DNA from: Streptomyces djakartensis
GTDB lineage: Bacteria; Actinomycetota; Actinomycetes; Streptomycetales; Streptomycetaceae
Direction of reading: 5' to 3'
Assembly: GCF_014651075.1 (NCBI RefSeq)
Contig: NZ_BMWE01000002.1
Span: forward strand, 372,001 to 436,000
Length of the DNA: 64,000 nucleotides
Shown: positions 1-13,521 of the stretch, one piece after another
Layout: each line of letters starts with the position of its first letter
How positions within the stretch are numbered: position 1 is the stretch's first letter
Position numbers and translations under genes: made by a program
The notes under the pieces: generated by a model
What the model was told of the DNA's origin: nothing
The model's database searches: none
The model's input: the letters and a program-made list of their open reading frames with translations, nothing else

Positions 1-339
1 GACGCTCTGGCCGATCACGCCCAGCGTGGTGCCCAGGTACCACTGTTCCACCAGGGCGTCCCACACCGCGCGGGGTCCGGGCAGGACGTAGTCCGGTTTG
101 ACCCCCGCGAGGTGGACCAGCTCCCAGACCGTCAGGATCAGGGCGATGGCCACCACGGGGGGCGTCACGCGCGTCAGCAGCACCTTGCCCAGCCTGGCGC
201 CGCCCTTGTGCTGTGCGCTCTGCAGAGCGTCCAGCCCGGTACTCAGCCCGTCCAGTTCGTTGCCGTCCCGCGGGGTGTTGGGCAGGAGGGTCCGGGGATC
301 CGCCGCCCTCCGGGGCCGTCTGGTGTCAGCTCCTGGCAT
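1..339 (-). CDS. ABC transporter permease, sulfonate/nitrate/taurine type (C-terminal part off window)
   Basis: Only the first 113 residues are in the window; the gene runs off the left edge. After a charged N-terminus (residues 1-48) comes a hydrophobic membrane segment (VAIALILTVWELVH), then the LPGP-x(3)-VWDAL stretch typical of the start of SsuC/TauC/NrtB-type permeases. The ATG at 339 overlaps the last 14 bases of the ATPase gene upstream, so the two are translationally coupled. As a family, such permeases form the membrane channel for organosulfur compounds or similar anions, driven by the ATPase encoded just before. The location behind cysDN supports a sulfur role, but the true substrate cannot be read from this fragment. 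Confidence 0.85.
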   Translation of the reverse strand, partial: MPGADTRRPRRAADPRTLLPNTPRDGNELDGLSTGLDALQSAQHKGGARLGKVLLTRVTPPVVAIALILTVWELVHLAGVKPDYVLPGPRAVWDALVEQWYLGTTLGVIGQSV

Positions 340-1198
340 GACGGCTGATTTCCTTGCGTAACTCTTCCGTGATTTCCTTCGACTTCTCCGCCACTGCCTC
401 GTCCTCCAGACGCCTGGGGTACGTCAGGTCGATGCGCCACTCACGGGCGATCCGGCCCGGCCGGGAGGTCAGCAGCACCACCCGGCCGCCGAGCCGCACC
501 GCCTCCCGGACGTTGTGGGTCACGAAGAGCACCGACAGGCTGCGGGCGTCCGTGCCGGGCTGGTTCCACTCCTGCCAGACCCGGATCAGCTCCTCGTGCA
601 GAAGGTCGCGGGTGATCGCGTCCAGCGCCGCGAACGGCTCGTCCATCAACAGGACTTGTGACGCCTGGGCCAGGGCGCGGGCCAGCGCGACGCGTTGGCG
701 CATGCCGCCGGACAGCTCGTGCACCCGTTTGCCGTACGCGCCGCTCAGGCGGACGAGCCCCAGCAGGCGTTCCGCCTCAAGGCGGCGCTCACGCCGCGGA
801 ACTCCTCTGAGCCTGAGCGCCAGTTCGATGTTCTTGCCGGCGGTCAGCCACGGGAACAGGGCATGTTCCTGGAACATCAGCGCGGGGCGCGGGCCCACCG
901 CCGAGACCTCCCCCGCGCTGGGTTCGTCGATCCCGGCCGCCAGGGCGAGCAGGGTGGACTTGCCGCAGCCGGAGGCACCCAGGAGACACACGAACTCGCC
1001 GGGTGCCACGGCCAGGCTGATGTCGTCGAGCACGAGCTGATCGCCGCGGGGGCGGCCGAAGGACTTGGACACCCCTCGCAGTTCAAGCGCGGGCGGGGCC
1101 GCGGGGGCGTGCGCCGGGGCCGCCCGCGGGCCCGGCGGCCTGCCGGCCGTCGCGATGGACTCGGCCGTGCGCGGGGGGTCGTACACCGGCCGGTTCAC
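326..1198 (-). CDS. ABC transporter ATP-binding protein, SsuB/TauB/NrtD type
   Basis: This 290-residue ATPase has a 45-residue Pro/Ala-rich N-terminal extension and then one full nucleotide-binding domain: Walker A GASGCGKST, Q-loop (FQEHALFPW), signature LSGGMRQRV, Walker B LLMDEPFAALD and a switch His in FVTHNVREA. The EHALFPWLT form of the Q-loop is usual in ATPases of the sulfonate/taurine/nitrate importer group. The GTG start at 1198 overlaps the cysN stop by 4 bases (GTGA). It should energise the permease encoded next. A matching lipoprotein receptor is not in this operon but lies across the divergent promoter at 11015-12127. Confidence 0.9.
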   Translation of the reverse strand: MNRPVYDPPRTAESIATAGRPPGPRAAPAHAPAAPPALELRGVSKSFGRPRGDQLVLDDISLAVAPGEFVCLLGASGCGKSTLLALAAGIDEPSAGEVSAVGPRPALMFQEHALFPWLTAGKNIELALRLRGVPRRERRLEAERLLGLVRLSGAYGKRVHELSGGMRQRVALARALAQASQVLLMDEPFAALDAITRDLLHEELIRVWQEWNQPGTDARSLSVLFVTHNVREAVRLGGRVVLLTSRPGRIAREWRIDLTYPRRLEDEAVAEKSKEITEELRKEISRHARS

Positions 1199-2514
1199 AG
1201 GCCTCCCTCGCAGCCGTCCGTGAACGCGGCGCCCGCCATGCCCGCGGCCAGTGTGGCCCCGTCGGCCGGATCGATCAGCAGGAAGGATCCGGTGCGGCGC
1301 GAGTGCGCGTATCCGTCCATGGCCAGCGGCTCGGAGGTGTGCAGCACGATCGTCGCGAGGTCGTTGGCGGTCAGGGAATCCGGCCGGGGACGGCGCGCCA
1401 GACCGTGTCCGGTGTCGATCCGGTAGGGGAGGTCCTTGACGACCGCCTTGACCGTGCGCGTGGTGTGCTTGAGCAGCACGTGGGCCCCCACGACGAGGGG
1501 CCTCTCATGCAGGTGGCAGACCGTCGCCTCGACACGCCGCGTGAGTTCGGGGGCGCCGGCGGTCGGCACGACCAGGTCACCGCGGGCGACGTCCAGGGCG
1601 TCGTCGAACAGGACGGTCACGGACTCAGGGGCCGAGGCGCTCGGGACGGGGACACCCAGGGCGTCGATGGCCGCGATGGTCGTCACCTGGCCGGAGGGCA
1701 GCACGGTGACGGACTCTCCGACGTGGAAGCTGCCGGCGGCGATCTGGCCCGCGTATCCGCGGTAGTCGGGGTGCTCGGCGGTCTGCGGCCGGATCACGTA
1801 CTGCACCGGGAGGCGCGCGTCGCCGGACAGGTCGCGGCTCACCGGGACGCTTTCCAGGTGTTCGAGGACGGTGGGGCCGCCGTACCAGTCCATGTTCGCG
1901 GACGGCTCGACGACGTTGTCCCCGGCCAGCGCCGAGATCGGGATCGCGGTGATCTCCGGGACGCCCAGTTCGGTCGCGTACGCGGTCAGCTCCACCGCGA
2001 TCCGCGCGAACACCGCCTCCTCGTAACCGGCGAGGTCCATCTTGTTCACCGCGAGCACCACGTGCGGCACCCGCAGCAGAGCGGCGATGGCGACATGGCG
2101 GCGGGTCTGCTCCACCACCCCCTTGCGGGCGTCGACGAGGACGACGGCCAGGTCGGCTGTGGAGGTGCCGGTGACCATGTTCCGGGTGTACTGCTCGTGG
2201 CCCGGGGAGTCGGCCAGGACGAACCGGCGCCGCGCGGTGGCGAAGTAGCGGTGCGCCACGTCGATGGTGATGCCCTGCTCGCGCTCGGCGCGCAGACCGT
2301 CGGTCAGCAGTGCGAGGTCCGGGGTGTCCCGGCCGCGGTTGCGGGATGCCTGCTCGACGGCCTCCAGCTGGTCGGCCAGCACACTCTTCGAGTCGTACAG
2401 AAGCCGTCCCACCAGCGTGGACTTGCCGTCGTCGACGGAGCCCGCGGTGGCGAAGCGCAGCAGGGTGGTGGCGCCCGCCGGCCCCTCGGCGGTCTGCTCG
2501 GTGGTCGTCCTCAT
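1195..2514 (-). CDS. cysN: Sulfate adenylyltransferase subunit 1 (GTPase subunit)
   Basis: CysN is the regulatory GTPase of ATP sulfurylase. GTP hydrolysis drives CysD to form adenosine 5'-phosphosulfate (APS) from ATP and sulfate. The 439-residue protein shows all EF-Tu-like GTPase motifs near its N-terminus: G1 GSVDDGKST, switch region ITIDVAHRYF, G3 DSPGHEQY and G4 NKMD, followed by EF-Tu-like beta-barrel domains. There is no C-terminal APS kinase fusion, in keeping with a separate cysC. I chose the ATG at 2514 because it lies 2 bases after the cysD stop and begins the conserved protein; the open frame further upstream is only non-coding read-through of cysD. The 3' end overlaps the ABC ATPase gene. 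Confidence 0.97.
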   Translation of the reverse strand: MRTTTEQTAEGPAGATTLLRFATAGSVDDGKSTLVGRLLYDSKSVLADQLEAVEQASRNRGRDTPDLALLTDGLRAEREQGITIDVAHRYFATARRRFVLADSPGHEQYTRNMVTGTSTADLAVVLVDARKGVVEQTRRHVAIAALLRVPHVVLAVNKMDLAGYEEAVFARIAVELTAYATELGVPEITAIPISALAGDNVVEPSANMDWYGGPTVLEHLESVPVSRDLSGDARLPVQYVIRPQTAEHPDYRGYAGQIAAGSFHVGESVTVLPSGQVTTIAAIDALGVPVPSASAPESVTVLFDDALDVARGDLVVPTAGAPELTRRVEATVCHLHERPLVVGAHVLLKHTTRTVKAVVKDLPYRIDTGHGLARRPRPDSLTANDLATIVLHTSEPLAMDGYAHSRRTGSFLLIDPADGATLAAGMAGAAFTDGCEGGL

Positions 2515-2516
2515 CC

Positions 2517-3452
2517 CTAGAAGTACCCTTCGCGCTTGCGGTCTTCCATCGCCGCTTCGGAGAGCTTGTCGTCGGCGCGCGTGGCGCCCCGCTCGGTCAG
2601 CCGGGTCGCGGCGATCTCCGTGATGACCTGCTCGACGGTCCTGGCGTCCGAGTCCACCGCGCCGGTGCAGGACATGTCCCCGACCGTCCGGTAACGGACC
2701 AGGCGTTTCTCCACCGGTTCGGACGCGGTGGGTCCGCCCCACTCCCCCGCTGTCAGCCACATCGCGGAGCGCCGGAACACCTCCCGTTCGTGGGCGAAGT
2801 AGATCTCCGGCAGCTCGATCCGTTCGCGCTGGACGTACTGCCACACATCGAGTTCGGTCCAGTTGGACAGCGGGAAGACCCGCACGTGCTCGCCCGGAGC
2901 GTGGCGGCCGTTGTAGAGCTGCCAGAGCTCGGGGCGCTGCCGGCGCGGATCCCACTGCGAGAACTCGTCCCGCAGGGAGAACACCCGTTCCTTGGCCCGC
3001 GCCTTCTCCTCGTCCCGCCGTGCGCCGCCGAGCACCGCGTCGAAGCGGTGCTGCCGGATGGCCTCGGTCAGCGGGAGGGTCTGGAGCGGGTTGCGGGTGC
3101 CGTCGGGGCGCTCGCGCAGGACTCCGCGGTCGATGTAGTCCTGCACGTCGGCCACGAGCAGCCGCAGCCCGTACCGGGCCACCGTCCGGTCCCGGTAGGC
3201 GATCACCTCCGGGAAGTTGTGCCCGGTGTCCACGTGCAGCAGCGGGAACGGGACCGGCGCCGGGGCGAACGCCTTCCGCGCCAGGTGCAGCATGACGATG
3301 GAGTCCTTGCCTCCGGAGAACAGCAGCACCGGGTTCTCCAGCTCACCCGCCACCTCACGGATGATGTGCACCGCCTCCGACTCCAGCGAGTCCAGGTGGC
3401 TCCAGATCCGCGACACCGGCATGTGCGACTGCGCTGCGGTCGCCCCCGTCAC
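2517..3452 (-). CDS. cysD: Sulfate adenylyltransferase subunit 2
   Basis: CysD is the catalytic subunit of ATP sulfurylase and joins sulfate to the AMP moiety of ATP. The 311-residue protein carries the PP-loop signature LLFSGGKDSIVML near residue 50, a conserved LPLTEAIRQHRFDAVLGGARRD region and FPLSNWTELDVWQY, all typical of CysD. Length is normal for the family. The GTG start at 3452 overlaps the cysC stop in a GTGA junction; the longer open frame upstream is the shadow of cysC. Within this operon it supplies APS to CysC and so PAPS to the sulfotransferase encoded at the operon head. Confidence 0.97.
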   Translation of the reverse strand: MTGATAAQSHMPVSRIWSHLDSLESEAVHIIREVAGELENPVLLFSGGKDSIVMLHLARKAFAPAPVPFPLLHVDTGHNFPEVIAYRDRTVARYGLRLLVADVQDYIDRGVLRERPDGTRNPLQTLPLTEAIRQHRFDAVLGGARRDEEKARAKERVFSLRDEFSQWDPRRQRPELWQLYNGRHAPGEHVRVFPLSNWTELDVWQYVQRERIELPEIYFAHEREVFRRSAMWLTAGEWGGPTASEPVEKRLVRYRTVGDMSCTGAVDSDARTVEQVITEIAATRLTERGATRADDKLSEAAMEDRKREGYF

Positions 3453-3997
3453 AACAACCCCCTCACGATCAGCAAAGCGTGCAGCATCACGGCGGACTCC
3501 TGCACGGTCTGGTTCTGGGTCTCGATGCGCAGGTCCGGGGACTCGGGCACCTCGTAGGGGTCGTCCACCCCTGTCAGACCGGTCAGTTCGCCTGCGGCCT
3601 GCTTGGCGTACAGCCCCTTCACATCGCGTTTCGCGCACACCTCCACGGGCGTGGCGACGTGAACCTCCAGGTACGGGGTCCCGCTCTGTTCGTGGCGCTT
3701 GCGCACGGCCTCACGGCTGTCCCGGTACGGGGCGATCACCGGGACCAGGGCGATGATCCGGTTCCGGGCGAGGATCTCGGCGACCAGCCCGATGCGCTGC
3801 ACGTTCGTGTAGCGGTCCTCGCGGCTGAAGCCGAGGCCGGCCGAGAGGAACGAGCGGATCACGTCACCGTCGAGCACCTCGACGCGGTGTCCGTCGCCGC
3901 GTAGCCGTTCGGCGAGCGCGGCGGCGATGGTGGTCTTGCCGGAGCTCGGCAGTCCGGTCAGCCAGACGGTACAACCCTGGTGTAAGACGGCCGTCAT
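3449..3997 (-). CDS. cysC: Adenylylsulfate (APS) kinase
   Basis: This 182-residue APS kinase phosphorylates APS to 3'-phosphoadenosine 5'-phosphosulfate (PAPS). Visible motifs are the Walker A loop GLPSSGKTT, DGDVIR, FSREDRYTNVQRIG, PVIAPYRDSREAVR and the lid region KGLYAKQAAGEL. The length is right for a stand-alone bacterial CysC. The ATG at 3997 overlaps the cysQ stop as ATGA, and the stop overlaps the cysD GTG, so cysQ-cysC-cysD form a coupled chain. With no PAPS reductase in the operon, the likely consumer of its product is the sulfotransferase at 8697-9695. Confidence 0.97.
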   Translation of the reverse strand: MTAVLHQGCTVWLTGLPSSGKTTIAAALAERLRGDGHRVEVLDGDVIRSFLSAGLGFSREDRYTNVQRIGLVAEILARNRIIALVPVIAPYRDSREAVRKRHEQSGTPYLEVHVATPVEVCAKRDVKGLYAKQAAGELTGLTGVDDPYEVPESPDLRIETQNQTVQESAVMLHALLIVRGLL

Positions 3998-4812
3998 ACG
4001 CCCGCGCCCTCCTCGGCGACCGGCCAGTCGGGGCAGACCCGGGCGAACGCCGCCCGGAACGGCTCGTGCAGCTCCGGTGCGCAGACGGCCAGGTCGGGCA
4101 GCATCGGATCGGCCCGGTTGTAGCGCGGCACACTGCCGTCGAGCCTGAGTACGGTGCAGCCGTAGTGGGCGGCGACGGCCGCGGGTGCCGCCGAGTCCCA
4201 CTCGTACTGGCCGCCGGCGTGCACGTAGAGATCCGCCTCGCCGAGCACGACGGACGCGGTCTTGGCCCCGGCCGAACCCTGGGGTACGAGGTCGGCGCCC
4301 AGTTCCTCGGCCAGACGGGTGACGAACTCCGGCGGCCGGGTGCGGCTGACCAGCATCCGCGGACGCCGCCGGACGGCCGCCCGGGGCGGCACCGGATCGT
4401 CGGTGCACAGGACGGTGCCGCGTGCGGGCAGCGCGACGGCTCCCGCCCTCAGCCGGCCCTCCTCCCACAGGGCCACGTGCACGGCCCAGTCCTCGCGGTG
4501 AGGCTCGGCGAACTCGCGGGTGCCGTCGAGCGGATCGATGATCCAGACCCGGCGCGCGCTCAGCCGGCCCCGGTCGTCGGCCGCCTCCTCCGACAGGACC
4601 GCATCGTACGGCCGGTGCCGCTTGAGCAAGTCGGCGAGGACCGACTGGGCACCACGGTCGCCGGCGGCCTTCAGTTCGCGCGGGTCGGTGTCCGGCGCCG
4701 CCGCTGCTCTGATCTCCATGAGCCGCGCGCCCGCCTCCTCCGCGCAGGCCCGCGCGAAGGCGTGGTCGTCCTGGTGCGCCTCACCCGTGTCGTGTGTGTC
4801 AGTGGAACTCAT
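3994..4812 (-). CDS. cysQ: 3'(2'),5'-bisphosphate nucleotidase
   Basis: CysQ belongs to the inositol-monophosphatase fold and hydrolyses PAP (adenosine 3',5'-bisphosphate) to AMP. The 272-residue protein has the metal-binding motifs [21 protein letters not shown] and, near the C-terminus, [18 protein letters not shown] is the product inhibitor left by sulfotransferases and PAPS reductases, so a dedicated CysQ beside CysCDN fits a sulfation pathway well. The ATG at 4812 overlaps the end of the amino-acid ABC ATPase gene by 14 bases, and its TGA overlaps the cysC start. Assignment to PAP rather than inositol phosphate rests on context and the SEEAADD form of the motif. Confidence 0.9.
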
Positions 4813-5605
4813 GTGTTCTCCCCGTGCTGGTCGAGCCCGGCCCCGGTTCAGCAGAACCCTGCGGCCCGAGAACCCGTTGGAGGAAGGTGCGGGTGCGTTC
4901 CTGGCGGGGATCGTCGATGACCTGCGACGGCAGGCCCTCCTCGACGATCACTCCGGCGTCCATGAAGACGACGCGGTCGGCCACGTCCCGCGCGAAAGCC
5001 ATCTCGTGCGTGACGACGAGCATCGTCATGCCGTCCAGAGCGAGGTCGCGCATGACGGTGAGTACCTCGCCGACGAGTTCGGGATCGAGGGCGGAGGTCG
5101 GCTCGTCGAAGAGCATCACGCTGGGGTTCATCGCCAGCGCCCGGGCGATGGCGACGCGCTGCTGCTGCCCGCCGGACAGCTGCGCCGGGTAGGCGTCGGC
5201 CTTCTCCGCGACGCCGACGCGGGCCAGGCAGTCACGCCCCACACGCTCCGCCTCGGCTCGGTCCCTCTTCAGGACACGCCGCTGGGCGATGGTCACGTTT
5301 CCCAGCACCGTCAGGTGAGGGAAGAGGTGGAACATCTGGAACACCATGCCCATCCGCCGCCGGGCCGCGTCCAGGTCGGTGTCGGGGTGGTTCATGCGGA
5401 CACCGTCGACCGTGACGACGCCCGAGGTGGGCTCCTCGAGCATGTTCACACAGCGCAGCAGCGTGGACTTGCCGGACCCGGAGGGGCCGATGACGCACAC
5501 GACCTCGCCCGGCGCGATGCGCAGGTCGACTCCCTTGATGACGTCGAGCCCTCCGTACGACTTGTGCAGTGCGACCACTTCGACGGCTGGTTGAGCCGTG
5601 GCCAT
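4799..5605 (-). CDS. Polar amino acid ABC transporter ATP-binding protein
   Basis: This 268-residue ATPase is of the GlnQ/HisP/TcyC class. It has Walker [10 protein letters not shown], a Q-loop in [16 protein letters not shown], signature LSGGQQQRV, Walker [15 protein letters not shown] and switch His VTHEMAF. The [11 protein letters not shown] phrase is characteristic of polar-amino-acid uptake ATPases. It follows the permease stop by 3 bases and overlaps the cysQ start by 14 bases. With the permease and binding lipoprotein upstream it makes one complete importer inside the PAPS operon. The substrate is probably an amino acid or amino-acid-like molecule; cystine is possible but not shown. 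Confidence 0.93.
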
Positions 5606-5608
5606 GCG

Positions 5609-6463
5609 TCAGCCCCTTTCGGCGCGGCGGCTCTCCAGCCGGCGCACCAGGATCCCGAGCGGGACGGTGATGAGGAGGTAGCCGAGACCGGCCACCACGA
5701 GCGGGGTGGAATCGGCCTGGTCGGCCGCCACGTCGGAACCGAACTTGGCGAGTTCGGTGGTGGCCGCCGTGACCCCCAGGACGAACGCCAACGAGGAGTC
5801 CTTGAAGAGCAGGACGAGTTCGTTGGTCAGAGGCGGCACGACGATGCGCAGGGCCTGCGGCACCACGATCGAGAACATCGCCCGGGTGTGCGACATGCCC
5901 AGGCAACGGGCGCTCTCCATCTGCCCCTTGGGCACGGCCTGGATGCCGGCCCGGAAGGTCTCGGCCATGTACGCCGCCGAGACCAGGCCCAGTGCCAGCG
6001 CCACCTGCCCGTAGATGTCCCCGGGCAGCGCGAATCCGGGGAAGGCGACCGGGATCCCGAAGCCGATGATCAGGAAGATCACCAGCGCCGGCAGTCCCCG
6101 GAAGATCTCGATGTAGAGCAGGGCCGTCCAGCGGTGCAGCGGTACGGACGACAGGCGCATCAGGGCCAGCACGAGCCCGAGCAGGAAGCCGAGGACGTAC
6201 CCGGAGAGCGTGTAGAGGACGGTGTTGCGCAGCGCCACCGTGAGCAGTTCGGGGAAGGTCTCGCGGGCGACGCCCAGGTCGAGGAAGTGCTCCTGGACGG
6301 CGGCCCAGTCGACCTGGAGCCCCACCGCGGCGACGACGATCACGAACACCGCGTACTGCACGGTCAGGCTGATGCGTCGACGGCGGCGCGGGCTGGAACC
6401 GGCTGTCGCGGAGGGTGCGGGAGCGGGGTCGAGGGGCAGGGGAGCTGCGGACGTCTTGGCCAT
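5609..6463 (-). CDS. Polar amino acid ABC transporter permease
   Basis: The 284-residue protein starts with a Pro/Ala-rich cytoplasmic stretch (about 40 residues), then a membrane helix (YAVFVIVVAAVGL), a periplasmic segment and the His/Glu/Gln/Arg permease core with LRNTVLYTLSGYVLGFLLGL, EIFRGLPALVIFLII and AYMAETFRAGIQAVPKGQ. The last is the EAA loop contacting the ATPase. The ATG at 6463 is preferred over one at 6502 because it has a GAGGGAG ribosome-binding sequence and lies just after the receptor stop (7-base gap), while the longer form would overlap the receptor gene by 32 bases. It forms the translocation channel of the importer. Confidence 0.93.
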   Translation of the reverse strand: MAKTSAAPLPLDPAPAPSATAGSSPRRRRRISLTVQYAVFVIVVAAVGLQVDWAAVQEHFLDLGVARETFPELLTVALRNTVLYTLSGYVLGFLLGLVLALMRLSSVPLHRWTALLYIEIFRGLPALVIFLIIGFGIPVAFPGFALPGDIYGQVALALGLVSAAYMAETFRAGIQAVPKGQMESARCLGMSHTRAMFSIVVPQALRIVVPPLTNELVLLFKDSSLAFVLGVTAATTELAKFGSDVAADQADSTPLVVAGLGYLLITVPLGILVRRLESRRAERG

Positions 6464-6470
6464 GGCTCCC

Positions 6471-7313
6471 TCAGGAAGTCGCGCTCTGCTCGGGTGGGAC
6501 ACCGAGCCACTTCTGGTGGAGCTGGGCGTAGCTGCCGTCCTGCTTCGCCTCGGCGATCACCTCGTTGATCACCTTGAGCAGGTGCTCACTGCCCTTCTTC
6601 TTCACGACGAAGCCGTAGTGCGCTCCGGTGCTGATGGGCTGTCCGGCGGCGAACTTCCCGGCCAGTTCGGGCTTCTTGAGCCAGCTGGTGACCACGGGGA
6701 GATCCTGCACGATGACGTCGACGCTCCCCGAGCGCAGAGCGGTGAGCTGCTTGCCGGAGTCCTTGTACTCCTGAGGCTCGATGCCCTTGTCCACCGCGGC
6801 CTTCATGCTCGTGGTGCCGGTCAGCACGCCGACGCGAAGTCTGCCGGACCTGGCCTCGTCGAGCGTGGCCACCGGTTTGCCCTTGGGGCTCATCAGGCTG
6901 AGCGCCTCGTCGAAGTACGAGTCCGAGAAGGCGACGTTCTTCTTGCGCTCCTCGGTGATCGTGATGCCGGCCGCGGCGACGTCGCACCTGCCGGAGTTGA
7001 GGGCCGCGCCGCTCCGGATCGGGTCGAAGTCGATGTCGACGATCTCCTGCTTCACCCCGAGCCGCCGGGCCACCTTGTCCATGAGTGCGATGTCGAAGCC
7101 GACGACCTTGCCGTTGCGGGAGAAGGAGAACGGCTCGTAGGGCACGTTGGTGCAGACCACCAGCTTCCCGGACTTCACAAGCGTGACGTTCTTGACCAGC
7201 GGTGAAGCGGCCTTCTCGGTGGCCGCGTCACCGCAGGAGGCGGTGAGGAGGGCCACCGGCAGCATCGCGCCGACGACGGCCCGGCGGCGTCTGGCGTGTG
7301 GCGACGCCGTCAC
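6471..7313 (-). CDS. Amino acid ABC transporter substrate-binding lipoprotein
   Basis: This 280-residue receptor begins with a basic region and a lipoprotein signal ending in the lipobox LTAS-C near residue 27, so it should be anchored to the outer face of the membrane. The mature part is a family 3 solute-binding protein: GKLVVCTNVPYEPFSF, GFDIALMDKVARRLG, RCDVAAAGITITEER and a C-terminal LHQKWLG. It probably delivers a polar amino acid to the adjacent permease and ATPase. The GTG start at 7313 overlaps the ATP-grasp stop (GTGA), which ties import to the ligase gene. Family 3 proteins also bind cystine, opines and ectoine, so the ligand is open. Confidence 0.92.
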   Translation of the reverse strand: MTASPHARRRRAVVGAMLPVALLTASCGDAATEKAASPLVKNVTLVKSGKLVVCTNVPYEPFSFSRNGKVVGFDIALMDKVARRLGVKQEIVDIDFDPIRSGAALNSGRCDVAAAGITITEERKKNVAFSDSYFDEALSLMSPKGKPVATLDEARSGRLRVGVLTGTTSMKAAVDKGIEPQEYKDSGKQLTALRSGSVDVIVQDLPVVTSWLKKPELAGKFAAGQPISTGAHYGFVVKKKGSEHLLKVINEVIAEAKQDGSYAQLHQKWLGVPPEQSATS

Positions 7314-8626
7314 CGGGTCTTCTGCCCTTGCGTCTCGTCGGCGTCGACGACTTCCACGTCGAGCTTCTCCGCGAGGGCGCGGGCCACGTCGTGGACGACG
7401 GCCGGGTCCTGGCCGGGCTGCCAGGGGTGCCACACGGACAGCAGGCCGGTGAAGTCGAAGCCCTTCTCGCCGGAGACCACGTCCGTGCCGGGCTTGGCCA
7501 CGGGGAAGTAGGTGCGGAAGTACGGCGAGTGCATGGCCTCGCCCACGCTGTTGCGCACGACCCGCCCGTTGCGGTAGACGACCTTGGCGCACACGGTCAT
7601 CCGGGGCGGCTGCTTCTGGTTCTCCTGGGCGAGGATGTCCTCGACGCTCTCGCCGCACGCCGCGCGCAGGAACATGCGCACGAAGTCGATGGCGTACACG
7701 TCCTTGATGTGCCGGTAGACGTGGCCACCGGAGACGCGGATCGAGAACTCGACGACCCGGTAGCGGCCTTCGGCGTCCTGCCGCATCTCGGCGTTGAACA
7801 GGCCGTGCTTCACGCCGAGTGCACGGGTGATGCTCGCGGCGATGCCGGCGACCTCGTCCTCGTGCTCCGGGGTCTTGAACGGCAGTGTGTACAGGTCCTC
7901 TTCGAAGTGCGGGCCGGTCGAGTGCTTCTTGTTGTGGACGCCGCCGAGGACGAACTGCCCGTCGAGTACGACGCCGTCGAGGGTGATCTCCTCGCCCGGC
8001 AGGTACTCCTCGAGGACCGCCCAGGACTCCGGGGCGCCGGAGAAGTAGAAGTTGCGGCCGCTTTCGATGTAGCCCTGGATCACCTTGAGGGAGGCCCTCA
8101 ACCGGTTCACGTCGCTGACCAGTTCCACGCAGTCGCTGGCGGCGGCCCGGGTCGGCTTCACCATGAGCGGCAGCCCTCGGTCGGTGGCTGCCTCCACGGC
8201 CGACTCGATGTCGGTGACCGGGTGGAACCAGACCGACGGGATGCCGTGCTCGGCCAGGAACGTCCGCTGCCGGAGCTTGTCGCGGCAGATGCGGGCGGCC
8301 TCGGGGATCGCCCAGTCGAGGCCGAGCTCCGCGTTGGCCTCCTCGACGATCTCGATGTCCGGCTCGATGAAGGTGATGACAGCGGAGGCGCCGCGTTCCC
8401 GGGCGGTCTCGACGGCGGCCTTCACGAAGTCACGCTGGTCGGAGTCGTGCGGGAGCCGGCGTACTGAGGCGAAGCGGGGATCGTTCGCCCAGGGCTCCGT
8501 GTCGACGGTGAGGAGGTGGGTCCGTATGTCCAGGTCGAGCATGGTCTGCACGTGGTCCGGAGACGTGCTCAGCCCGCGTCTCATCACGAGCACGAGGGTG
8601 CGGGTCCGGCTGGTGACCTCTGTCAT
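7310..8626 (-). CDS. ATP-grasp domain ligase
   Basis: This 438-residue protein has an N-terminal Rossmann-like pre-ATP-grasp domain (residues 1-110, including VITFIEPDIEIVEEANAELG) followed by an ATP-grasp fold: KLRQRTFLAEHGIPSV, GLPLMVKPTRAAASDCVELV, EEYLPGEEITLDGVV and the metal-binding region around NAEMRQDAEGRYRVVEFSIR. It resembles carboxylate-amine ligases of the L-amino-acid ligase type, which join two small molecules through an acyl phosphate. In the usual E-x-N-x-R metal motif the Asn is replaced by Ser (EFSIR). I chose the ATG at 8626, with AAGGAG 12 bases upstream; the open frame before it is out-of-character shadow sequence. Substrates are unknown. Confidence 0.85.
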   Translation of the reverse strand: MTEVTSRTRTLVLVMRRGLSTSPDHVQTMLDLDIRTHLLTVDTEPWANDPRFASVRRLPHDSDQRDFVKAAVETARERGASAVITFIEPDIEIVEEANAELGLDWAIPEAARICRDKLRQRTFLAEHGIPSVWFHPVTDIESAVEAATDRGLPLMVKPTRAAASDCVELVSDVNRLRASLKVIQGYIESGRNFYFSGAPESWAVLEEYLPGEEITLDGVVLDGQFVLGGVHNKKHSTGPHFEEDLYTLPFKTPEHEDEVAGIAASITRALGVKHGLFNAEMRQDAEGRYRVVEFSIRVSGGHVYRHIKDVYAIDFVRMFLRAACGESVEDILAQENQKQPPRMTVCAKVVYRNGRVVRNSVGEAMHSPYFRTYFPVAKPGTDVVSGEKGFDFTGLLSVWHPWQPGQDPAVVHDVARALAEKLDVEVVDADETQGQKTR

Positions 8627-8696
8627 GCGGTTTCGGAGCTCCTTGGTTCGGCGTGCGAGGGAACAAGGTCCGCGGGCGACGGCCCAGGGCGGGGGT

Positions 8697-9695
8697 TCAG
8701 GCCGGGTAGCCGTACAGCTCCAGGGCCTTGGCCAGGCGCTCGTGCGCCAGCTGCTCGACCCGCGGGGTGAACGCCTCCCGCCAGCTGCCGATCTGGCCCT
8801 TGAAGAAGGAGAACGAGTCCCTGCGGAAGATCCCGTCAGCGGTCTTCTCGGGGTCCGCGTCGGCACCGACGAACTCGATCACACGCCGTACCACGTCGAG
8901 CTGGGCGTCGGCCGAGCCACCGCCCTGCGGCCCCACCATTTCCTCGAACGATATGTTGCAGACCTTGGGGTGGTTCAGGAGCCAGAGCATCCGCTCATGG
9001 TCACCGCTGCCCGGGAAGGCCGGATCCGACAGGGCGTAAAGAAGACGCTCCTCCAGGGAGCCCTTGGCGGCCAGGATGTTGTTGAACACCTGAAACTCGC
9101 TGAAGTTTCCGAACCCCTGGGCGGTCCTTCCGAGCAGGAAGTTCACCATCGACAGGACCATGTCGCGTGGATCGCGGTACATGAAGAGGATCCGCGGCTC
9201 ACCGGTCCGGGACCATTCCTCGATGAATTTCCCGTCGACCTTCTTGATGTCGAGTTCCGGAACGATCCAGCAGGTGTTCTCCGGCGTCCAGGAGAAAGGC
9301 GTGTCGGAGGTGCGCCGCAGAGCCTGATCGACGGCTTCGGTATGGGTGAGCTGAGCGCCGTAGCGGTTGACCAGAGGCATTCCGAGACGCTGCTGCCAGG
9401 CCCAGCCGAGCGCCTCCCACGCCTGATCGGCGCCGACCCGGAAGGCCTCTTCGCCCTGCCCTTTGAGGGCGTCGGCCGCCTGGTCGCCGTGCACCATGCG
9501 CACGATTCGATCACGCGTCTCGTCACCCAGGACCGGCCGGATTTCCTGCGGAATCCTGGACTGACCGTAGATCTTGTAGCCGAGAGCCAGCATCAGTTCC
9601 TGCACCAGATGGGTGCCGGATTTCATCAGCGAGACAACGAGGACTCTTTCCGCCCGAATGCCTCTGGCATCCGGAACATCTTGCTGCACAACCAT
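8697..9695 (-). CDS. PAPS-dependent sulfotransferase
   Basis: The 332-residue protein has the PAPS 5'-phosphosulfate loop near the N-terminus (VSLMKSGTHLVQEL, catalytic-type Lys25), the 3'-phosphate motif FMYRDPRDMVLSMVNFL in the middle and a C-terminal KGQIGSWREAF matching the KxGxxGxWK-type PAPS contact of cytosolic sulfotransferases. It should move a sulfuryl group from PAPS to a hydroxyl or amine acceptor. It is the first gene of the minus-strand operon, 70 bases before the ATP-grasp gene, and the operon also encodes PAPS synthesis and PAP removal. Base composition is visibly less GC-rich than the neighbours, a possible sign of recent acquisition. Acceptor unknown. Confidence 0.92.
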   Translation of the reverse strand: MVVQQDVPDARGIRAERVLVVSLMKSGTHLVQELMLALGYKIYGQSRIPQEIRPVLGDETRDRIVRMVHGDQAADALKGQGEEAFRVGADQAWEALGWAWQQRLGMPLVNRYGAQLTHTEAVDQALRRTSDTPFSWTPENTCWIVPELDIKKVDGKFIEEWSRTGEPRILFMYRDPRDMVLSMVNFLLGRTAQGFGNFSEFQVFNNILAAKGSLEERLLYALSDPAFPGSGDHERMLWLLNHPKVCNISFEEMVGPQGGGSADAQLDVVRRVIEFVGADADPEKTADGIFRRDSFSFFKGQIGSWREAFTPRVEQLAHERLAKALELYGYPA

Positions 9696-9774
9696 CCCCT
9701 CACTTGCCCGCGGATACCTTTCGGTAATCAGCGGACAACTCTGACTCTAATGTTGATCAAATCGTTGCAAGTGC

Positions 9775-9790
9775 TTGACATCAATGTCAA
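9775..9790. promoter_or_regulatory. Palindrome overlapping a -35-like element of the sulfotransferase operon
   Basis: The sequence TTGACATCAATGTCAA is an inverted repeat with 7-base arms (TTGACAT/ATGTCAA) and a 2-base centre, about 80 bases upstream of the sulfotransferase start. Read on the minus strand it starts with TTGACA, followed 18 bases later by AACGAT, so a promoter driving the operon could lie within or next to it. The geometry fits a dimeric repressor or activator site. The binding protein is unknown and no regulator gene is adjacent. Confidence 0.45.
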
Positions 9791-10140
9791 CCAAAGAAAC
9801 TTCCACCCCATCCGTCCAGAGCGCCTTTCAGCCAAGAGCGTTGCCCGCAGGACACTGCCACCGTCCCCGCCTCGCAGATAAGCGCCCCTTATGACGAAAA
9901 CGGGGCGAACAGAACAATCACCTCACCCCTAGCCGACCGAACACCCCTACGGACCGACGCGGCTCATAGAATTTACTTTCACTTAGCTGCCGCAAAGAAA
10001 GGGAAGCGGATATTCCGGGCGGCGGGGAACGGTGCACACTGCAGCTTGCGTGAGCCGTCCGATTGGCCGAGAAGCCCCCGTGAAGGCACATCGTTCGGCC
10101 GATTCGCCCAGAATCCCCGAGGCACCCTTGACGCGCCGAG

Positions 10141-10168
10141 TTGAGCACTTCCGAGGCGGGCGTAAGAT
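10141..10168 (+). promoter_or_regulatory. Putative promoter of the MBL-fold hydrolase gene
   Basis: A -35-like TTGAGC (10141-10146) and a good -10 TAAGAT (10163-10168) are spaced by 16 bases. The predicted start of transcription near 10175 would leave a leader of about 43 nt before the ATG at 10218. This is inference from sequence only. Confidence 0.45.
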
Positions 10169-10217
10169 CGGAAATCCCGTCAACTCGCAAGGCCGCACCT
10201 CTGAACAGGAACACCGC

Positions 10218-11000
10218 ATGATGCACCTCACGATTCTGGGCGGCTGCGGAGCATGGCCGGTCAAGGACCAGCCGTGCAGCGGATATCTGGTTCAGAGCGA
10301 GGGCTTCCGCCTGTTCGTCGACCCCGGCTACGCGACCTTCCCCGCGCTCCAGGAGTATGTGACGGCCGGGCAGGTCGACGCCGTGCTGGTCACGCACGGA
10401 CATCCGGACCACTGCGCCGACCTCAACCCGCTGCTGCGCGCCCGGGCCCTCACCGACGAGCCACCGGCTCCCCTGCCCGTGTACACGCTGCCCTCCGCGC
10501 TCGACGCCGTGCTCTGCCTGGACCGGCCGGGGATGCTGAGGGACTCCTTCGAACTGCGCGAGTTCCAGGGCGGCGACAGCTTCGGGATCGGCCCCTTCCG
10601 TGTCGATACCCGCCTGCTGCCGCACTTCGTCCCGAACGCCGGCGTCCGGCTGTCCGCGGGCGGCATGTCCCTGGCCTACACGGGGGACACCGGGCCCAGT
10701 CCCGAGGTGACCGCCCTCGCACGGGACGCCGATGTCCTGCTGTGCGAGGCCACGTACGTCGATCAAGTGCCGCGTGCAGACGAGGAGTTCCTCTTGAGCG
10801 CACGTCTGGCGGGTGAGTACGCTGAGGCAGCGCGGGCAGCACGGCTCCTGCTCACGCATCTGTGGCCGGGCACCGGTCAGGCACCCGCCGTGAACGCAGC
10901 CGCCCGGGCCTTCACCGGGCCGGTCGAGGTGGCCCACCCCGGCCTCATGGCTCATGTCCCCGCGGCGGCCTCCCCTCCTCCTCCCGGATTCCACACCTGA
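10218..11000 (+). CDS. MBL-fold metallo-hydrolase
   Basis: This 260-residue protein is a metallo-beta-lactamase-fold hydrolase of the RNase Z-like group: the dinuclear metal motif HxHxDH appears as VTHGHPDHCADL near residue 60, with downstream ligands in LPHFVPN, LAYTGDTGPS and LLLTHLWPGT. Such proteins hydrolyse phosphodiesters, lactones, thioesters or sulfate esters, so no substrate can be named. I chose the ATG at 10218 (an ATG also occurs at 10221) because AGGA lies 8 bases upstream and the conserved fold begins there (HLTILGGCGAWP). It is transcribed away from the PAPS operon and followed after 14 bases by the sulfonate-type receptor, so it may belong to the same pathway. Confidence 0.88.
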   Translation: MMHLTILGGCGAWPVKDQPCSGYLVQSEGFRLFVDPGYATFPALQEYVTAGQVDAVLVTHGHPDHCADLNPLLRARALTDEPPAPLPVYTLPSALDAVLCLDRPGMLRDSFELREFQGGDSFGIGPFRVDTRLLPHFVPNAGVRLSAGGMSLAYTGDTGPSPEVTALARDADVLLCEATYVDQVPRADEEFLLSARLAGEYAEAARAARLLLTHLWPGTGQAPAVNAAARAFTGPVEVAHPGLMAHVPAAASPPPPGFHT

Positions 11001-11014
11001 CCTCGAGGACCCTC

Positions 11015-12127
11015 ATGCGCCTTGCCCCGTTACCGTCAGTTCCCCTGACCCGGCTGCTCGCGGCGGCGGTGGCGCTCACCGTCGCACTGAGCCTGCTGGC
11101 GGGATGCGGATACGGAAAGAACCGGCCGGTCGCGGCGGGCGCGGCCGGGGCACCCGCCCGGGGCCCGAAACTCTCCGTCGACACCGTGCGCGTCGGCTAC
11201 CTGCCCAATCTCACCCATGCCACGGCGCTCGTCGGCCTCGAGCGGGGTTTCTTCGCCCGGGAGCTGAAGGGGACGGCTGTCGCTCCCCGGACCTTCAACG
11301 CCGGCCCGGCCGTGATCGAGGCCCTCAACGCCGGTTCCGTCGACATCGCGTGGATCGGACCGTCGCCCGCGATCAACGGATACCTGCGGTCGGGCGGCAA
11401 CGCGCTGCGGATCGTGGCGGGCTCCGCCTCCGGTGGTGTGCGCTTCGTGGTGAACCCCGACCGCATTCGCTCCCTGAACGAGGTGAAGGGCAAACGGATC
11501 GCCACACCGCAGCTGGGCAACACCCAGGACGTGGCGTTCCTGCACTGGGCGGCGAGCCGGGGATGGAAGATCGATCCGGTGACCGGACGGGGTGACGTCT
11601 CCCTGGTACGCGCCGACAACCGGGTGACGGTGGACGCCTTCCGGTCCGGCTCGCTGGACGGCGCCTGGGTTCCCGAGCCGACCGCCTCGATCCTGGCCGC
11701 CGAGGGGGCGCGCGTGCTGCTGGACGAGGCGGACCTGTGGCCCGGCCGCCGGTTCGTCACGACGAACGTCGTCGTCTCGCCGTCGTTCCTGGCGAAGCAT
11801 CCGGACGTGGTCGACGCGGTCGTACGGGCATCCGTCGCCGCCAACACCTGGATCGCCGCCCACCCCGGGGAAGCCAGGACCGCGGCCGGTGCCCACCTCA
11901 AGCGCTTGACGGGCAAGGCGCTTCCCGCCGCCGTGCTCGGCGCCGCCTGGCAGGGGATCACGTTCACGAACGACCCGCTGGCCCCGACCCTGCGCACCCA
12001 GGCGCGGCACGCCGCGCGGTTGCGGCTGCTCGAGTCGTCGGACCTGACGGGGATCTACGATCTGGGCCCGCTCACGAGGGCGTTGCGGTCGGCGGGGCTT
12101 CCGCCGGTCACGGAAGACGCTCCATGA
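11015..12127 (+). CDS. Substrate-binding lipoprotein of a sulfonate/nitrate/taurine-type ABC importer
   Basis: A 370-residue secreted lipoprotein: basic N-terminus, hydrophobic core and lipobox LLAG-C near residue 31. The mature protein is of the SsuA/NrtA/ThiY class, with VRVGYLPNLTHATALVGLERGFF, NAGSVDIAWIGPSPAINGY, LRIVAGSASGGVRFV and KGKRIATPQLGNTQDVAF. It is the natural partner of the SsuB-like ATPase and SsuC-like permease at the far end of the divergent operon (1-1198), none of which has another receptor in the window. The ATG at 11015 begins the signal peptide and has GAGGA upstream. The ligand may be a sulfonate or sulfate ester, by context only. Confidence 0.9.
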   Translation: MRLAPLPSVPLTRLLAAAVALTVALSLLAGCGYGKNRPVAAGAAGAPARGPKLSVDTVRVGYLPNLTHATALVGLERGFFARELKGTAVAPRTFNAGPAVIEALNAGSVDIAWIGPSPAINGYLRSGGNALRIVAGSASGGVRFVVNPDRIRSLNEVKGKRIATPQLGNTQDVAFLHWAASRGWKIDPVTGRGDVSLVRADNRVTVDAFRSGSLDGAWVPEPTASILAAEGARVLLDEADLWPGRRFVTTNVVVSPSFLAKHPDVVDAVVRASVAANTWIAAHPGEARTAAGAHLKRLTGKALPAAVLGAAWQGITFTNDPLAPTLRTQARHAARLRLLESSDLTGIYDLGPLTRALRSAGLPPVTEDAP

Positions 12128-12173
12128 CGCTGGCGGACCTCCCCGCTCCTCAGGCGCCGCAGTACCGCCGGGA

Positions 12174-13394
12174 TCACTTCTCGCCCGCGAAGTCGAGACC
12201 GTCCGGAGCGGCCGGCGCGGGCGCCACTGACGGCGCGGTGACCGGCGCGCCGGCCCCCCTCGTGGTGTGTCGCCACGGACGGGCGATGGGTGCGGACACC
12301 GCCTGCCACCAAGGCTCCCCGGGCAGCTTCCCGGCCGGCTCGAAGGGCTCGCCCGGCCGGGGGAACGCCACGTCCTGTCCCACCTCCCCGGCCAGGTCCT
12401 TCGTCCACTCCCCCGGCTCCGCCCAGGCGTGGGTGGCGAGATTGAAGGTCCCCCAGTGGATCGGCAGCAGCACGCCGTGCGGCTTGCCTCCCTGCAGGTC
12501 CAGCTGCGCCTGGAGCCCCTCCTGGGGCGTCATGTGGATGTCGGGCCAGAAGTCGGAGTACGCGCCGAGCTGGATCATCGTGGCGTCGAACGGCCCGTGC
12601 CCCGCGCCGATCTCCTTGAAGCCCTCGAAGTAGCCGGTGTCGCCGCTGTGGTAGATCCGGTGCCGCTCACCGGCGACGACCCAGGAGGCCCACAGGGTGT
12701 GCTGGGTGTTGCGCAGCCCCCGGCCGCAGAAGTGCCGCGCGGGAGTGGCGGTCAGGGTGAGGCCGCCGATCGTCGTCGACTCGTGCCAGTCCAGTTCGCG
12801 CAGCCGGCTCTCGGCCACGCCCCAGTGCTCCAGGTGCGCCCCGACACCGAGAGGCACGGCGAACAGCGTGTCCGTGCCGGCCAGCGCCTTGATCGTGGGC
12901 ATGTCCAGATGGTCGTAGTGGTCGTGCGAGACGACCACGACGTCGACCGGGCCGAGTGCGGCCAGCGGCAGGGGCACCGGGTGCAGCCGCTTGGGTCCCG
13001 CGAAGGAGAACGGGGAGCAGCGCTCACCCCACACCGGGTCGAACAGGACCCGCTTCCCGTCGATCTCCGCCAGTACGCTGGAGTGCCCCAGCCAGGTCAG
13101 CCGCAGCCCCGTCGCCGGGGGCCGGGCGATGTCGGCGAGGGTGGTGGCGTGCACCGGCACCGCGCCCTTCGGGGCGCGCCGGGGCCGGGTCTCCTTGTCG
13201 AAGAAGACCTTCGCGAAGTCCAGGGCCGAGCCCGAGGGCCGGGTGCTCGCGGGACCGCCGGGGTTCTGGAAGACCCCGTCCTTGAAATGGGGCGATCTGC
13301 GGATGCGCGCCATGCGCTCACCGCGCGGGTCCGCGCCGAACGCACCGGGCCGAAGCGCACGGAGCCCGGAGCTCAGGGAACGGAAACCGGCCAC
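12174..13394 (-). CDS. NAPE-PLD/UlaG-like MBL-fold hydrolase
   Basis: This 406-residue protein belongs to the metallo-beta-lactamase group that includes N-acyl-phosphatidylethanolamine phospholipase D and lactonase UlaG. It shows LTWLGHSSVLAEIDGKRVLFDPVWG, the metal motif VVSHDHYDHLDMPT, TPARHFCGRG, HSGDTGYFEGF and LPIHWGTFNLATH. The C-terminal 35 residues are Ala/Pro-rich and likely disordered. The GTG at 13394 is chosen because a perfect GGAGG lies 4 bases upstream. It is a monocistronic gene convergent with the lipoprotein gene (46-base gap). Substrate not known; a lipid phosphodiester is likely from family knowledge. Confidence 0.88.
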   Translation of the reverse strand: MAGFRSLSSGLRALRPGAFGADPRGERMARIRRSPHFKDGVFQNPGGPASTRPSGSALDFAKVFFDKETRPRRAPKGAVPVHATTLADIARPPATGLRLTWLGHSSVLAEIDGKRVLFDPVWGERCSPFSFAGPKRLHPVPLPLAALGPVDVVVVSHDHYDHLDMPTIKALAGTDTLFAVPLGVGAHLEHWGVAESRLRELDWHESTTIGGLTLTATPARHFCGRGLRNTQHTLWASWVVAGERHRIYHSGDTGYFEGFKEIGAGHGPFDATMIQLGAYSDFWPDIHMTPQEGLQAQLDLQGGKPHGVLLPIHWGTFNLATHAWAEPGEWTKDLAGEVGQDVAFPRPGEPFEPAGKLPGEPWWQAVSAPIARPWRHTTRGAGAPVTAPSVAPAPAAPDGLDFAGEK

Positions 13395-13521
13395 GGTACC
13401 TCCAGGGGTGGAGTCGTCAGACTGTCCATTATCGTCGGCCCCTGCGACAACACCCGGGCACCGGGGGTCCTTCCCCAGGCATACTGACCCACGATTCAGT
13501 AATCCGGCGAAGGAGCCCCGC

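What the first reader, a model, noticed from the sequence alone, without database searches (positions are those of the whole stretch)
1..9695. Self-contained PAPS sulfation operon with PAP recycling but no reductive branch
One minus-strand transcript order gives sulfotransferase, ATP-grasp ligase, a whole amino-acid importer, CysQ, CysC, CysD and CysN, then a sulfonate-type ATPase and permease. Every junction except the first (70 bases) is within 7 bases or overlapping. In streptomycete assimilation clusters, as I remember them, cysC/D/N travel with cysH and a sulfite reductase; neither is present here. The inventory instead matches the full cycle of sulfation: make PAPS, transfer sulfuryl, destroy PAP. 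The ligase and importer suggest the acceptor or product is an amino-acid-derived small molecule. I know of no characterised pathway with this gene set.
Basis: partly seen in the sequence, partly recalled or inferred. Interest (0 to 1): 0.8.

Follow-up and report, generated by a model that had tools for sequence, protein, structure and literature searches.

The report
Sulfation arm of hydrazine gene cluster
A Streptomyces genome carries a run of genes that likely makes the cell's sulfate donor on the spot and attaches sulfate to a small molecule, and it sits directly beside genes predicted to build a rare nitrogen-nitrogen (hydrazine) unit, so together they would make a sulfated hydrazine compound of a kind we found no report of.

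Summary
In detail: tightly packed minus-strand genes (sulfotransferase, ATP-grasp ligase, amino-acid importer, CysQ, CysC, CysD, CysN, ssuB, start of ssuC), with no cysH or sulfite reductase match in the window or the 17 kb to its left. The normal assimilatory cluster (sir, cysH, cysCDN, ssuABC) lies on another contig. Left of the window lies a complete hydrazine-forming set (lysine N-hydroxylase, cupin, MetRS-like protein, amino-acid oxidase) plus a methyltransferase and an MFS exporter. Of 7 loci examined with sulfotransferase identity of 54% or more (own included), hydrazine genes share the contig in 5, are in the same genome in 1 and are missing in 1; 0 of 10 loci at 31-47% have them. Actinomadura logoneensis carries different CysD-CysN-CysC (41-50% identical) in its cluster, so PAPS genes were probably recruited more than once. 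Best reading: the operon is the sulfation arm of a hydrazine dipeptide cluster. Substrate and product are untested. The amino-acid importer and CysQ are not core, and one relative keeps the sulfotransferase and methyltransferase without hydrazine genes. New variant of a known kind.

The parts
8697..9695 (-). PAPS-dependent sulfotransferase (SULT fold), first gene of the operon
7310..8626 (-). ATP-grasp L-amino acid ligase
   Evidence: PF13535; closest solved relatives are L-amino acid ligase BL00235 (E 2e-19) and BacD (E 6e-16); 66% identical match in A. logoneensis
6471..7313 (-). amino-acid ABC importer, binding lipoprotein (family 3)
   Evidence: PF00497; best NCBIfam model lysine/arginine/ornithine binding protein, below its cut-off; PDB best AncQR, then glutamine-type
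5609..6502 (-). amino-acid ABC importer, permease
   Evidence: PF00528; TIGR01726 above cut-off
4799..5605 (-). amino-acid ABC importer, ATPase (GlnQ-like)
   Evidence: PF00005; NCBIfam GlnQ 319.8 bits, cut-off 379
3994..4812 (-). CysQ, 3'-phosphoadenosine 5'-phosphate phosphatase
   Evidence: PF00459; closest solved relative PAP phosphatase 5djf, E 7e-60; only strong match in the genome
3449..3997 (-). CysC, APS kinase
   Evidence: PF01583; TIGR00455 above cut-off; 82% identical to the copy on contig C5
2517..3452 (-). CysD, sulfate adenylyltransferase small subunit
   Evidence: TIGR02039 above cut-off; 87% identical to the C5 copy; tree
1195..2514 (-). CysN, sulfate adenylyltransferase large subunit
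   Evidence: TIGR02034 above cut-off; 73% identical to the C5 copy
326..1198 (-). ssuB-like importer ATPase (sulfate/sulfonate type)
   Evidence: PF00005; NCBIfam taurine/nitrate ATPase models below cut-off; 75% identical to the C5 copy
1..339 (-). ssuC-like importer permease, N-terminal part; the gene continues to C2:371401, outside the window
   Evidence: 59% identical to the C5 copy
11015..12127 (+). ssuA-like binding lipoprotein, divergent from the operon; completes ssuABC
   Evidence: PF13379 NMT1_2 99 bits, PF09084; 60% identical to ssuA of the C5 cluster; beside the sulfotransferase also in S. violaceus and S. africanus
10218..11000 (+). metallo-beta-lactamase-fold hydrolase between operon and ssuA; doubtful member
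   Evidence: PF12706; 89% identical at the same place in S. violaceus but absent there in S. africanus; no match at E<=1e-60 in 9 of 9 other same-genus genomes, but 50-53% relatives in 4 of 6 same-order genomes
9696..10217 (.). divergent intergenic region, likely promoters of both arms
   Evidence: lies between the two divergent starts; promoter role inferred, no promoter scan was run

Best explanation
The minus-strand operon (sulfotransferase to ssuC) lies directly beside a hydrazine-type gene set and is predicted to be the sulfation arm of one biosynthetic cluster, which likely makes a sulfated, N-methylated hydrazine dipeptide. Inferred steps, in order. The lysine N-hydroxylase makes N6-hydroxylysine; the MetRS-like protein and the separate cupin join it to a second amino acid (glycine in the best-studied cases) through an N-N bond; the amino-acid oxidase releases a hydrazino acid such as hydrazinoacetic acid. 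The methyltransferase methylates it, and the ATP-grasp ligase couples it to an amino acid that the amino-acid importer may supply. The ssuABC importer would bring in sulfate (or a sulfonate), CysD/CysN/CysC would turn sulfate into PAPS, the sulfotransferase would put the sulfuryl group on the hydrazine product or its amino-acid part, CysQ would destroy the PAP by-product, and the MFS protein would export the product. Shown by sequence: gene order, families, conserved linkage, and a separate assimilatory cluster. Not shown: any enzyme activity, the order of steps, the sulfated atom, the product.
For: Left of the window on the same contig: FAD oxidase, MetRS-like, cupin (PF07883), lysine-type N-hydroxylase, MFS, methyltransferase (L003). 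The N-hydroxylase matches solved lysine N6-monooxygenase 9nns (E 1e-156) and KtzI (E 4e-118); these families match the Spb38/Spb40/Spb39 route to hydrazinoacetic acid described in PMC11705231 (section 15, part 1 of 2 read), where a separate MetRS-like protein and cupin are reported for albofungin. Linkage: of 7 loci with sulfotransferase identity of 54% or more (own genome included), hydrazine genes share a contig with the sulfotransferase in 5 (own, S. violaceus, M. echinofusca in part, A. logoneensis, KC606), lie in the same genome on another contig in 1 (S. africanus), and have no match in 1 (G1121). Control: in 0 of 10 loci at 31-47% identity do the 18-19.5 kb fetched hold them (7; 3). The homologue search for the methyltransferase found 86 proteins at E<=0.001; 27 contig lengths are shared between 85 of these and the 120 listed sulfotransferases, against 0.7 in a jittered null. 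The ligase matches L-amino acid ligases. CysC/D/N in A. logoneensis are 41-50% identical and in another order, and its CysD lies on a very long branch outside the Streptomyces copies, which fits separate recruitment.
Against: G1121 (58% sulfotransferase) keeps sulfotransferase, methyltransferase, an MFS gene, another ATP-grasp and a distant N-hydroxylase (36%) but has no MetRS-like, cupin or oxidase match in 33.6 kb, so the sulfotransferase's substrate need not be a hydrazine. Neither KC606 (26.9 kb) nor G1121 carries CysC/D/N beside the sulfotransferase; M. echinofusca and S. africanus contigs are too short to tell. The methyltransferase's glycine N-methyltransferase resemblance is weak by sequence (33 bits), and by fold C-methyltransferases rank first, so N-methylation is a guess. 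The sulfotransferase scores low for Pfam (27.6 bits) and its Foldseek TM-scores are 0.36-0.48 for the 33 matches at E<=0.001. The two arms are separated by a LysR gene and an opposite-strand dimethylargininase-like gene, so they are not one transcript. No product or expression data.
Confidence: 0.6

Rival explanations
1. Sulfation is a leaving-group trick, not a final decoration: the sulfotransferase would activate a hydroxyl (or an N-OH) so that a nitrogen can displace sulfate and close a ring or make a further bond, and the released product would carry no sulfate.
For: Sulfation followed by cyclisation is reported for ficellomycin and proposed for LGS1 (PMC8713700, passages), and LGS1 and retinol dehydratase are among the fold neighbours of the model. 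Azi10 and MmcV are listed as closest relatives of the ascamycin sulfate adenylyltransferase subunits (PMC4257720 table); that they belong to the azinomycin and mitomycin clusters is recalled. In G1121 an N-hydroxylase sits with the sulfotransferase and no hydrazine synthase.
Against: No cyclase-type gene was noticed in the conserved core; most listed fold neighbours are ordinary sulfotransferases.
Confidence: 0.18
2. The sulfotransferase and ligase act on an amino-acid partner alone (for example an O-sulfated amino acid), and the hydrazine genes contribute a separate half or a separate product.
For: G1121 keeps sulfotransferase, methyltransferase and an ATP-grasp without the hydrazine genes; related sulfotransferases (44-47%) sit with other ATP-grasp genes, two of them also with CysC or CysC/D/N, without hydrazine genes.
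Against: Linkage to hydrazine genes in 5 of 7 close loci, in Streptomyces, Micromonospora and Actinomadura.
Confidence: 0.12
3. The operon is simply a second sulfate uptake and activation locus and the sulfotransferase is an incidental neighbour.
For: cysCDN and ssuABC are 59-87% identical to the assimilatory set of the same genome, and the CysD falls inside the Streptomyces clade.
Against: No cysH or sir match; overlapping junctions through CysQ and the ligase; S. violaceus keeps the whole order; a different CysD-CysN-CysC set sits in the A. logoneensis cluster.
Confidence: 0.07

Closest known systems
Spb38/Spb40/Spb39 hydrazinoacetic acid route (s56-p1; also triacsin, azaserine, N-nitroglycine)
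   Same: Lysine-type N-hydroxylase, MetRS-like plus cupin, amino-acid oxidase (PMC11705231 section 15 part 1; PMC13274452 passages)
   Different: MetRS and cupin are separate genes; the oxidase has an N-terminal Peripla_BP_6 match (whether Spb39 has one was not checked); sulfotransferase and PAPS genes are added; no CreD/CreE, carrier-protein or NRPS gene was noticed among the genes read (no dedicated search)
Ascamycin cluster (acm), a sulfamate antibiotic with its own PAPS genes
   Same: Sulfate adenylyltransferase subunits (acmA, acmW), adenylylsulfate kinase (acmB) and a sulfotransferase (acmK) in one antibiotic cluster (PMC4257720, passages)
   Different: Acceptor is a nucleoside; sulfatases and radical-SAM genes; no hydrazine genes in the table rows seen
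Streptomyces sulfate assimilation cluster (contig C5 here; sco6093-6102 in S. coelicolor)
   Same: cysC, cysD, cysN, ssuA, ssuB, ssuC, 59-87% identical
   Different: Has sir and cysH; no sulfotransferase, ligase, CysQ or amino-acid importer seen in it
Negamycin (neg), an N-methylhydrazide dipeptide antibiotic
   Same: N-methylation and an ATP-grasp gene around a hydrazinoacetic acid unit (PMC12154649, passages; the negamycin structure itself is recalled)
   Different: Hydrazine is made by the heme enzyme NegJ from glycine, not by a MetRS/cupin pair; no sulfotransferase is mentioned in the passages read

Membership tests
Hydrazine synthetase (HAA-type) cluster | Flavin N-hydroxylase of the lysine type | tested here: met
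   PF13434 342 bits; 9nns lysine N6-monooxygenase E 1e-156, KtzI E 4e-118. Substrate not assayed
Hydrazine synthetase (HAA-type) cluster | MetRS-like protein plus cupin | tested here: met
   PF09334 221 bits, below NCBI's methionyl-tRNA synthetase cut-offs; adjacent 133-aa cupin, PF07883 38.2 bits, cut-off 27.2, no NCBIfam match; both found together in S. violaceus, S. africanus, A. logoneensis and KC606
Hydrazine synthetase (HAA-type) cluster | D-amino-acid-oxidase-type FAD enzyme | tested here: met
   PF01266 138 bits at residues 304-645
Hydrazine synthetase (HAA-type) cluster | Second amino acid is glycine (product hydrazinoacetic acid) | not testable with these tools
   Family members use Gly, Ala, Ser, Glu or Tyr (PMC11705231); no sequence test of specificity was made
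PAPS-dependent sulfotransferase (PF00685, SULT fold) | 5' phosphosulfate loop and 3' phosphate-binding R and S | tested here: met
   KSGTH at 25-29, R174, S182 and G300 invariant in the 46 aligned sequences; that these are the PAPS motifs is recalled; fold matches
PAPS-dependent sulfotransferase (PF00685, SULT fold) | Transfers sulfuryl from PAPS | not testable with these tools
   needs assay
Streptomyces sulfate assimilation cluster | Carries cysH and sulfite reductase | tested here: not met
   no match at E<=1e-3 in the window or the 17.4 kb left of the operon; both on contig C5
Ascamycin-type sulfamate cluster | Sulfatases (acmG, acmI) beside the sulfotransferase | tested here: inconclusive
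   none noticed among the ORFs read between L003:1 and window 16000; no acm sequence was searched with
Negamycin-type cluster | KinJ/NegJ heme enzyme | not tested
   No NegJ sequence was at hand; none was noticed among the ORFs read

The most novel reading that the evidence does not exclude
Actinobacteria make a natural product class in which a sulfo group sits on a hydrazine (N-N-SO3) or on an N-hydroxyl used as an electrophilic nitrogen donor, an enzymatic counterpart of the chemists' reagent hydroxylamine-O-sulfonic acid, with PAPS synthesis, PAP disposal and sulfate import built into the cluster.
Probability: 0.25. Interest if true: 0.78.

Novelty: new variant of a known kind. Interest (0 to 1): 0.56.

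Why it matters
Hydrazine synthetase clusters and clusters with built-in PAPS supply are each known, but our term searches listed no paper that by title or abstract start describes a cluster joining the two; the library is open-access only and most listed papers were not opened. The finding names a small, testable gene set in sequenced strains (S. violaceus NRRL B-2867, S. africanus NRRL B-24243, Micromonospora echinofusca, Actinomadura logoneensis) for finding a new sulfated N-N metabolite, and a sulfotransferase clade whose acceptor may be a nitrogen. Genome mining that keys on NRPS or PKS genes could miss it, since none was noticed among the genes read here.

Tried and rejected
Second assimilatory operon: rejected as the main reading because cysH/sir have no match nearby and a full set exists on C5. 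Known product by literature: no paper held all of 'hydrazinoacetic acid', 'sulfotransferase' and 'gene cluster' (0 papers); other term sets listed no matching pathway (in 99, 12 of 22 papers were listed, in 87, 15 of 25). Negamycin identity: rejected, since negamycin uses NegJ. Lanthipeptide tailoring: two relatives at 39-41% identity were seen in FDLD class I lanthipeptide loci, but no lanthipeptide gene was noticed near this operon. Wider distribution: sulfotransferase matches in 10 of 295 genus genomes at E<=1e-10, 4 of 391 order genomes at 1e-50, 1 of 394 class genomes at 1e-80, 9 of 160 in the genus of M. echinofusca at 1e-60 and 2 of 65 in the genus of A. logoneensis at 1e-60; the own genome is counted in the first three. 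Of the 9 other genomes with a match I fetched the surroundings of 7; of the 7 matches at 44-45% I fetched 3; two were not fetched. The homologue list shows 120 of 262 proteins, and that 120 of 497. Contig-length matching is a proxy for linkage and covers only the listed 120, 85 and 120 proteins; 5 contig lengths are shared by the sulfotransferase and MetRS-like lists (null 0.5). Methyltransferase substrate: the fold search ranks C-methyltransferases, sugar N-methyltransferases and glycine N-methyltransferase together, so it does not decide. The dimethylargininase/arginine dihydrolase gene (NCBIfam dimethylargininase above cut-off; PDB arginine dihydrolase) is a doubtful member: A. logoneensis has only a shortened copy that lacks an inner stretch. 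The metallo-beta-lactamase-fold gene, first taken as a member, is demoted: S. africanus lacks it.

Full report
What is there. The window is G000:C2:372001-436000. From 9695 down to 326 ten genes run on the minus strand: sulfotransferase, ATP-grasp ligase, amino-acid importer (binding protein, permease, ATPase), CysQ, CysC, CysD, CysN and an ssuB-type ATPase; an ssuC-type permease starts at 339 and ends outside at C2:371401. Junctions are 70, -4, -32 (or +7 with the next ATG), 3, -14, -4, -4, 2, -4 and -14 bases. Families were checked with Pfam and NCBIfam; CysQ by its closest solved relative, a PAP phosphatase. On the other strand a metallo-beta-lactamase-fold gene (10218-11000) and an ssuA-type lipoprotein gene (11015-12127) diverge from the operon.

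What lies left of the window. A LysR-type gene overlaps ssuC by 4 bases. Then come a dimethylargininase/arginine-dihydrolase gene on the opposite strand (L003:14448-15380) and a second minus-strand run: methyltransferase (13446-14291), MFS (12143-13483), lysine-type N-hydroxylase (10776-12131), cupin (10317-10718), MetRS-like protein (8722-10317), and an FAD oxidase with an N-terminal periplasmic-binding-like domain (6652-8715). Beyond that are a HATPase-type kinase gene, three small genes ending in a GTP-binding-type protein, and a zinc dehydrogenase. The genome's cysH and sulfite reductase proteins match nothing there or in the window at E<=1e-3.

Assimilation is elsewhere. CysD has a second copy, 87% identical, on contig C5. 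Around it are a sulfite reductase (PF01077), cysH (PF01507), cysC, cysD, cysN, ssuA, ssuB and ssuC. The sulfite reductase has no other strong match in the genome. The operon's CysC, CysD, CysN, SsuA, SsuB and SsuC are 82, 87, 73, 60, 75 and 59% identical to that set. In a tree of 32 CysD sequences the operon copy and the S. violaceus copy form one clade (100/100) inside Streptomyces and apart from the genome's own assimilatory copy; the exact sister is weakly supported (83/84). I infer that this cys block is a Streptomyces assimilation block without cysH and sir.

Conservation. The genome-contig scan gave 76 pattern matches, 4 of which encode a relative. S. violaceus has the same order, and the hydrazine arm follows on the same contig. 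In S. africanus one contig ends at the sulfotransferase and another carries oxidase, MetRS-like, cupin, N-hydroxylase, MFS and the start of the methyltransferase; its metallo-beta-lactamase-fold gene is missing. M. echinofusca has cupin, N-hydroxylase, sulfotransferase and methyltransferase on one 4.6-kb contig, with MetRS-like and oxidase genes on another. A. logoneensis has sulfotransferase, methyltransferase, ligase, MFS, CysD, CysN, CysC, a shortened dimethylargininase-like gene, N-hydroxylase, cupin, MetRS-like and oxidase in one run, with no match to the amino-acid importer, ssuABC or CysQ. KC606 has CysQ, another ATP-grasp, another MFS, then sulfotransferase, N-hydroxylase, cupin, MetRS-like, oxidase, methyltransferase and ligase, without CysC/D/N in 26.9 kb. 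G1121 has sulfotransferase, methyltransferase, MFS, ATP-grasp and a distant N-hydroxylase, but no MetRS-like, cupin or oxidase match in 33.6 kb. Thus hydrazine genes are with the sulfotransferase on one contig in 5 of 7 (own included), in the same genome in 1, and without match in 1. At 31-47% identity 0 of 10 fetched contexts (17.7-19.5 kb each) have them; 4 of those 10 (L020, L021, L025, L058) have another ATP-grasp match, and 2 of the 4 also CysC (L025) or CysC/D/N (L021).

The methyltransferase pairs with the sulfotransferase. The search found 86 relatives at E<=0.001; it reaches only proteins sharing short exact words. Among listed proteins, 27 contig lengths are common to the sulfotransferase (120) and methyltransferase (85) lists; a jittered null gives 0.7. 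Five are common to the sulfotransferase and MetRS-like lists, and all five are also in the methyltransferase list. This is a proxy; context was read only for the contigs named above.

Reading. The published hydrazine synthetase route (N-hydroxylysine plus a second amino acid, joined by MetRS-like and cupin domains, then cut by an oxidase to hydrazinoacetic acid) is described in PMC11705231 (section 15, part 1 of 2 read) and used in PMC13274452 and PMC13061610 (passages). PAPS genes inside an antibiotic cluster are described for ascamycin (PMC4257720 and PMC9113183, passages). Joining both, I read the operon as the sulfation arm of a hydrazine dipeptide cluster. That the sulfo group stays on the product is the preferred but untested option; sulfate as leaving group (as cited for ficellomycin in PMC8713700, passages) is the main rival. 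Negamycin, an N-methylhydrazide dipeptide (structure recalled), is the nearest product idea, but it uses another N-N enzyme (PMC12154649, passages).

Weak points. No activity was tested; the second amino acid, the methylated atom, the ligase partner and the sulfated atom are unknown. The two arms are not one transcript. The amino-acid importer, CysQ and ssuABC are features of the Streptomyces version, not of the core (CysQ also in KC606). G1121 shows that the sulfotransferase-methyltransferase pair can occur without the hydrazine genes. Absence from the literature rests on open-access term searches only.

Noticed in passing
L021 7960-18894, L025 3751-9433, L020 7882-10039: Sulfotransferase relatives (44-47% identity in their best stretch) sit beside another ATP-grasp and MFS-like genes, in L021 with a carbamoyltransferase (PF02543) and CysC/CysD/CysN/ssuA, and in L025 with CysC and a similar carbamoyltransferase start read by eye. 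This looks like another uncharacterised sulfation cluster family.
   Followed up: partly
L037 14001-14978; L038 11953-12987: Sulfotransferases at 39-41% identity lie between an FDLD class I lanthipeptide gene and lanthionine synthetase genes on Streptomyces plasmids (S. sp. Mg1, S. globosus), which suggests sulfated lanthipeptides.
   Followed up: no
L003:6652-8715: The FAD oxidase of the hydrazine arm carries an N-terminal Peripla_BP_6 match (residues 11-159); the A. logoneensis, KC606 and M. echinofusca proteins align over most of its length, N-terminal part included; its role is unknown.
   Followed up: partly
window 10218-11000: Metallo-beta-lactamase-fold hydrolase divergent from the operon: kept in S. 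violaceus, missing in S. africanus, no match at E<=1e-60 in 9 of 9 other same-genus genomes but 50-53% relatives in 4 of 6 same-order genomes. Substrate unknown.
   Followed up: partly
window 3994-4812: This CysQ is the only strong CysQ match in the genome; the other three hits are 31-36% identical, so it might also serve the assimilatory pathway.
   Followed up: no
L040 10090-10542: The dimethylargininase-like gene of the A. logoneensis cluster is shortened, lacking an inner stretch found in the Streptomyces copy.
   Followed up: no
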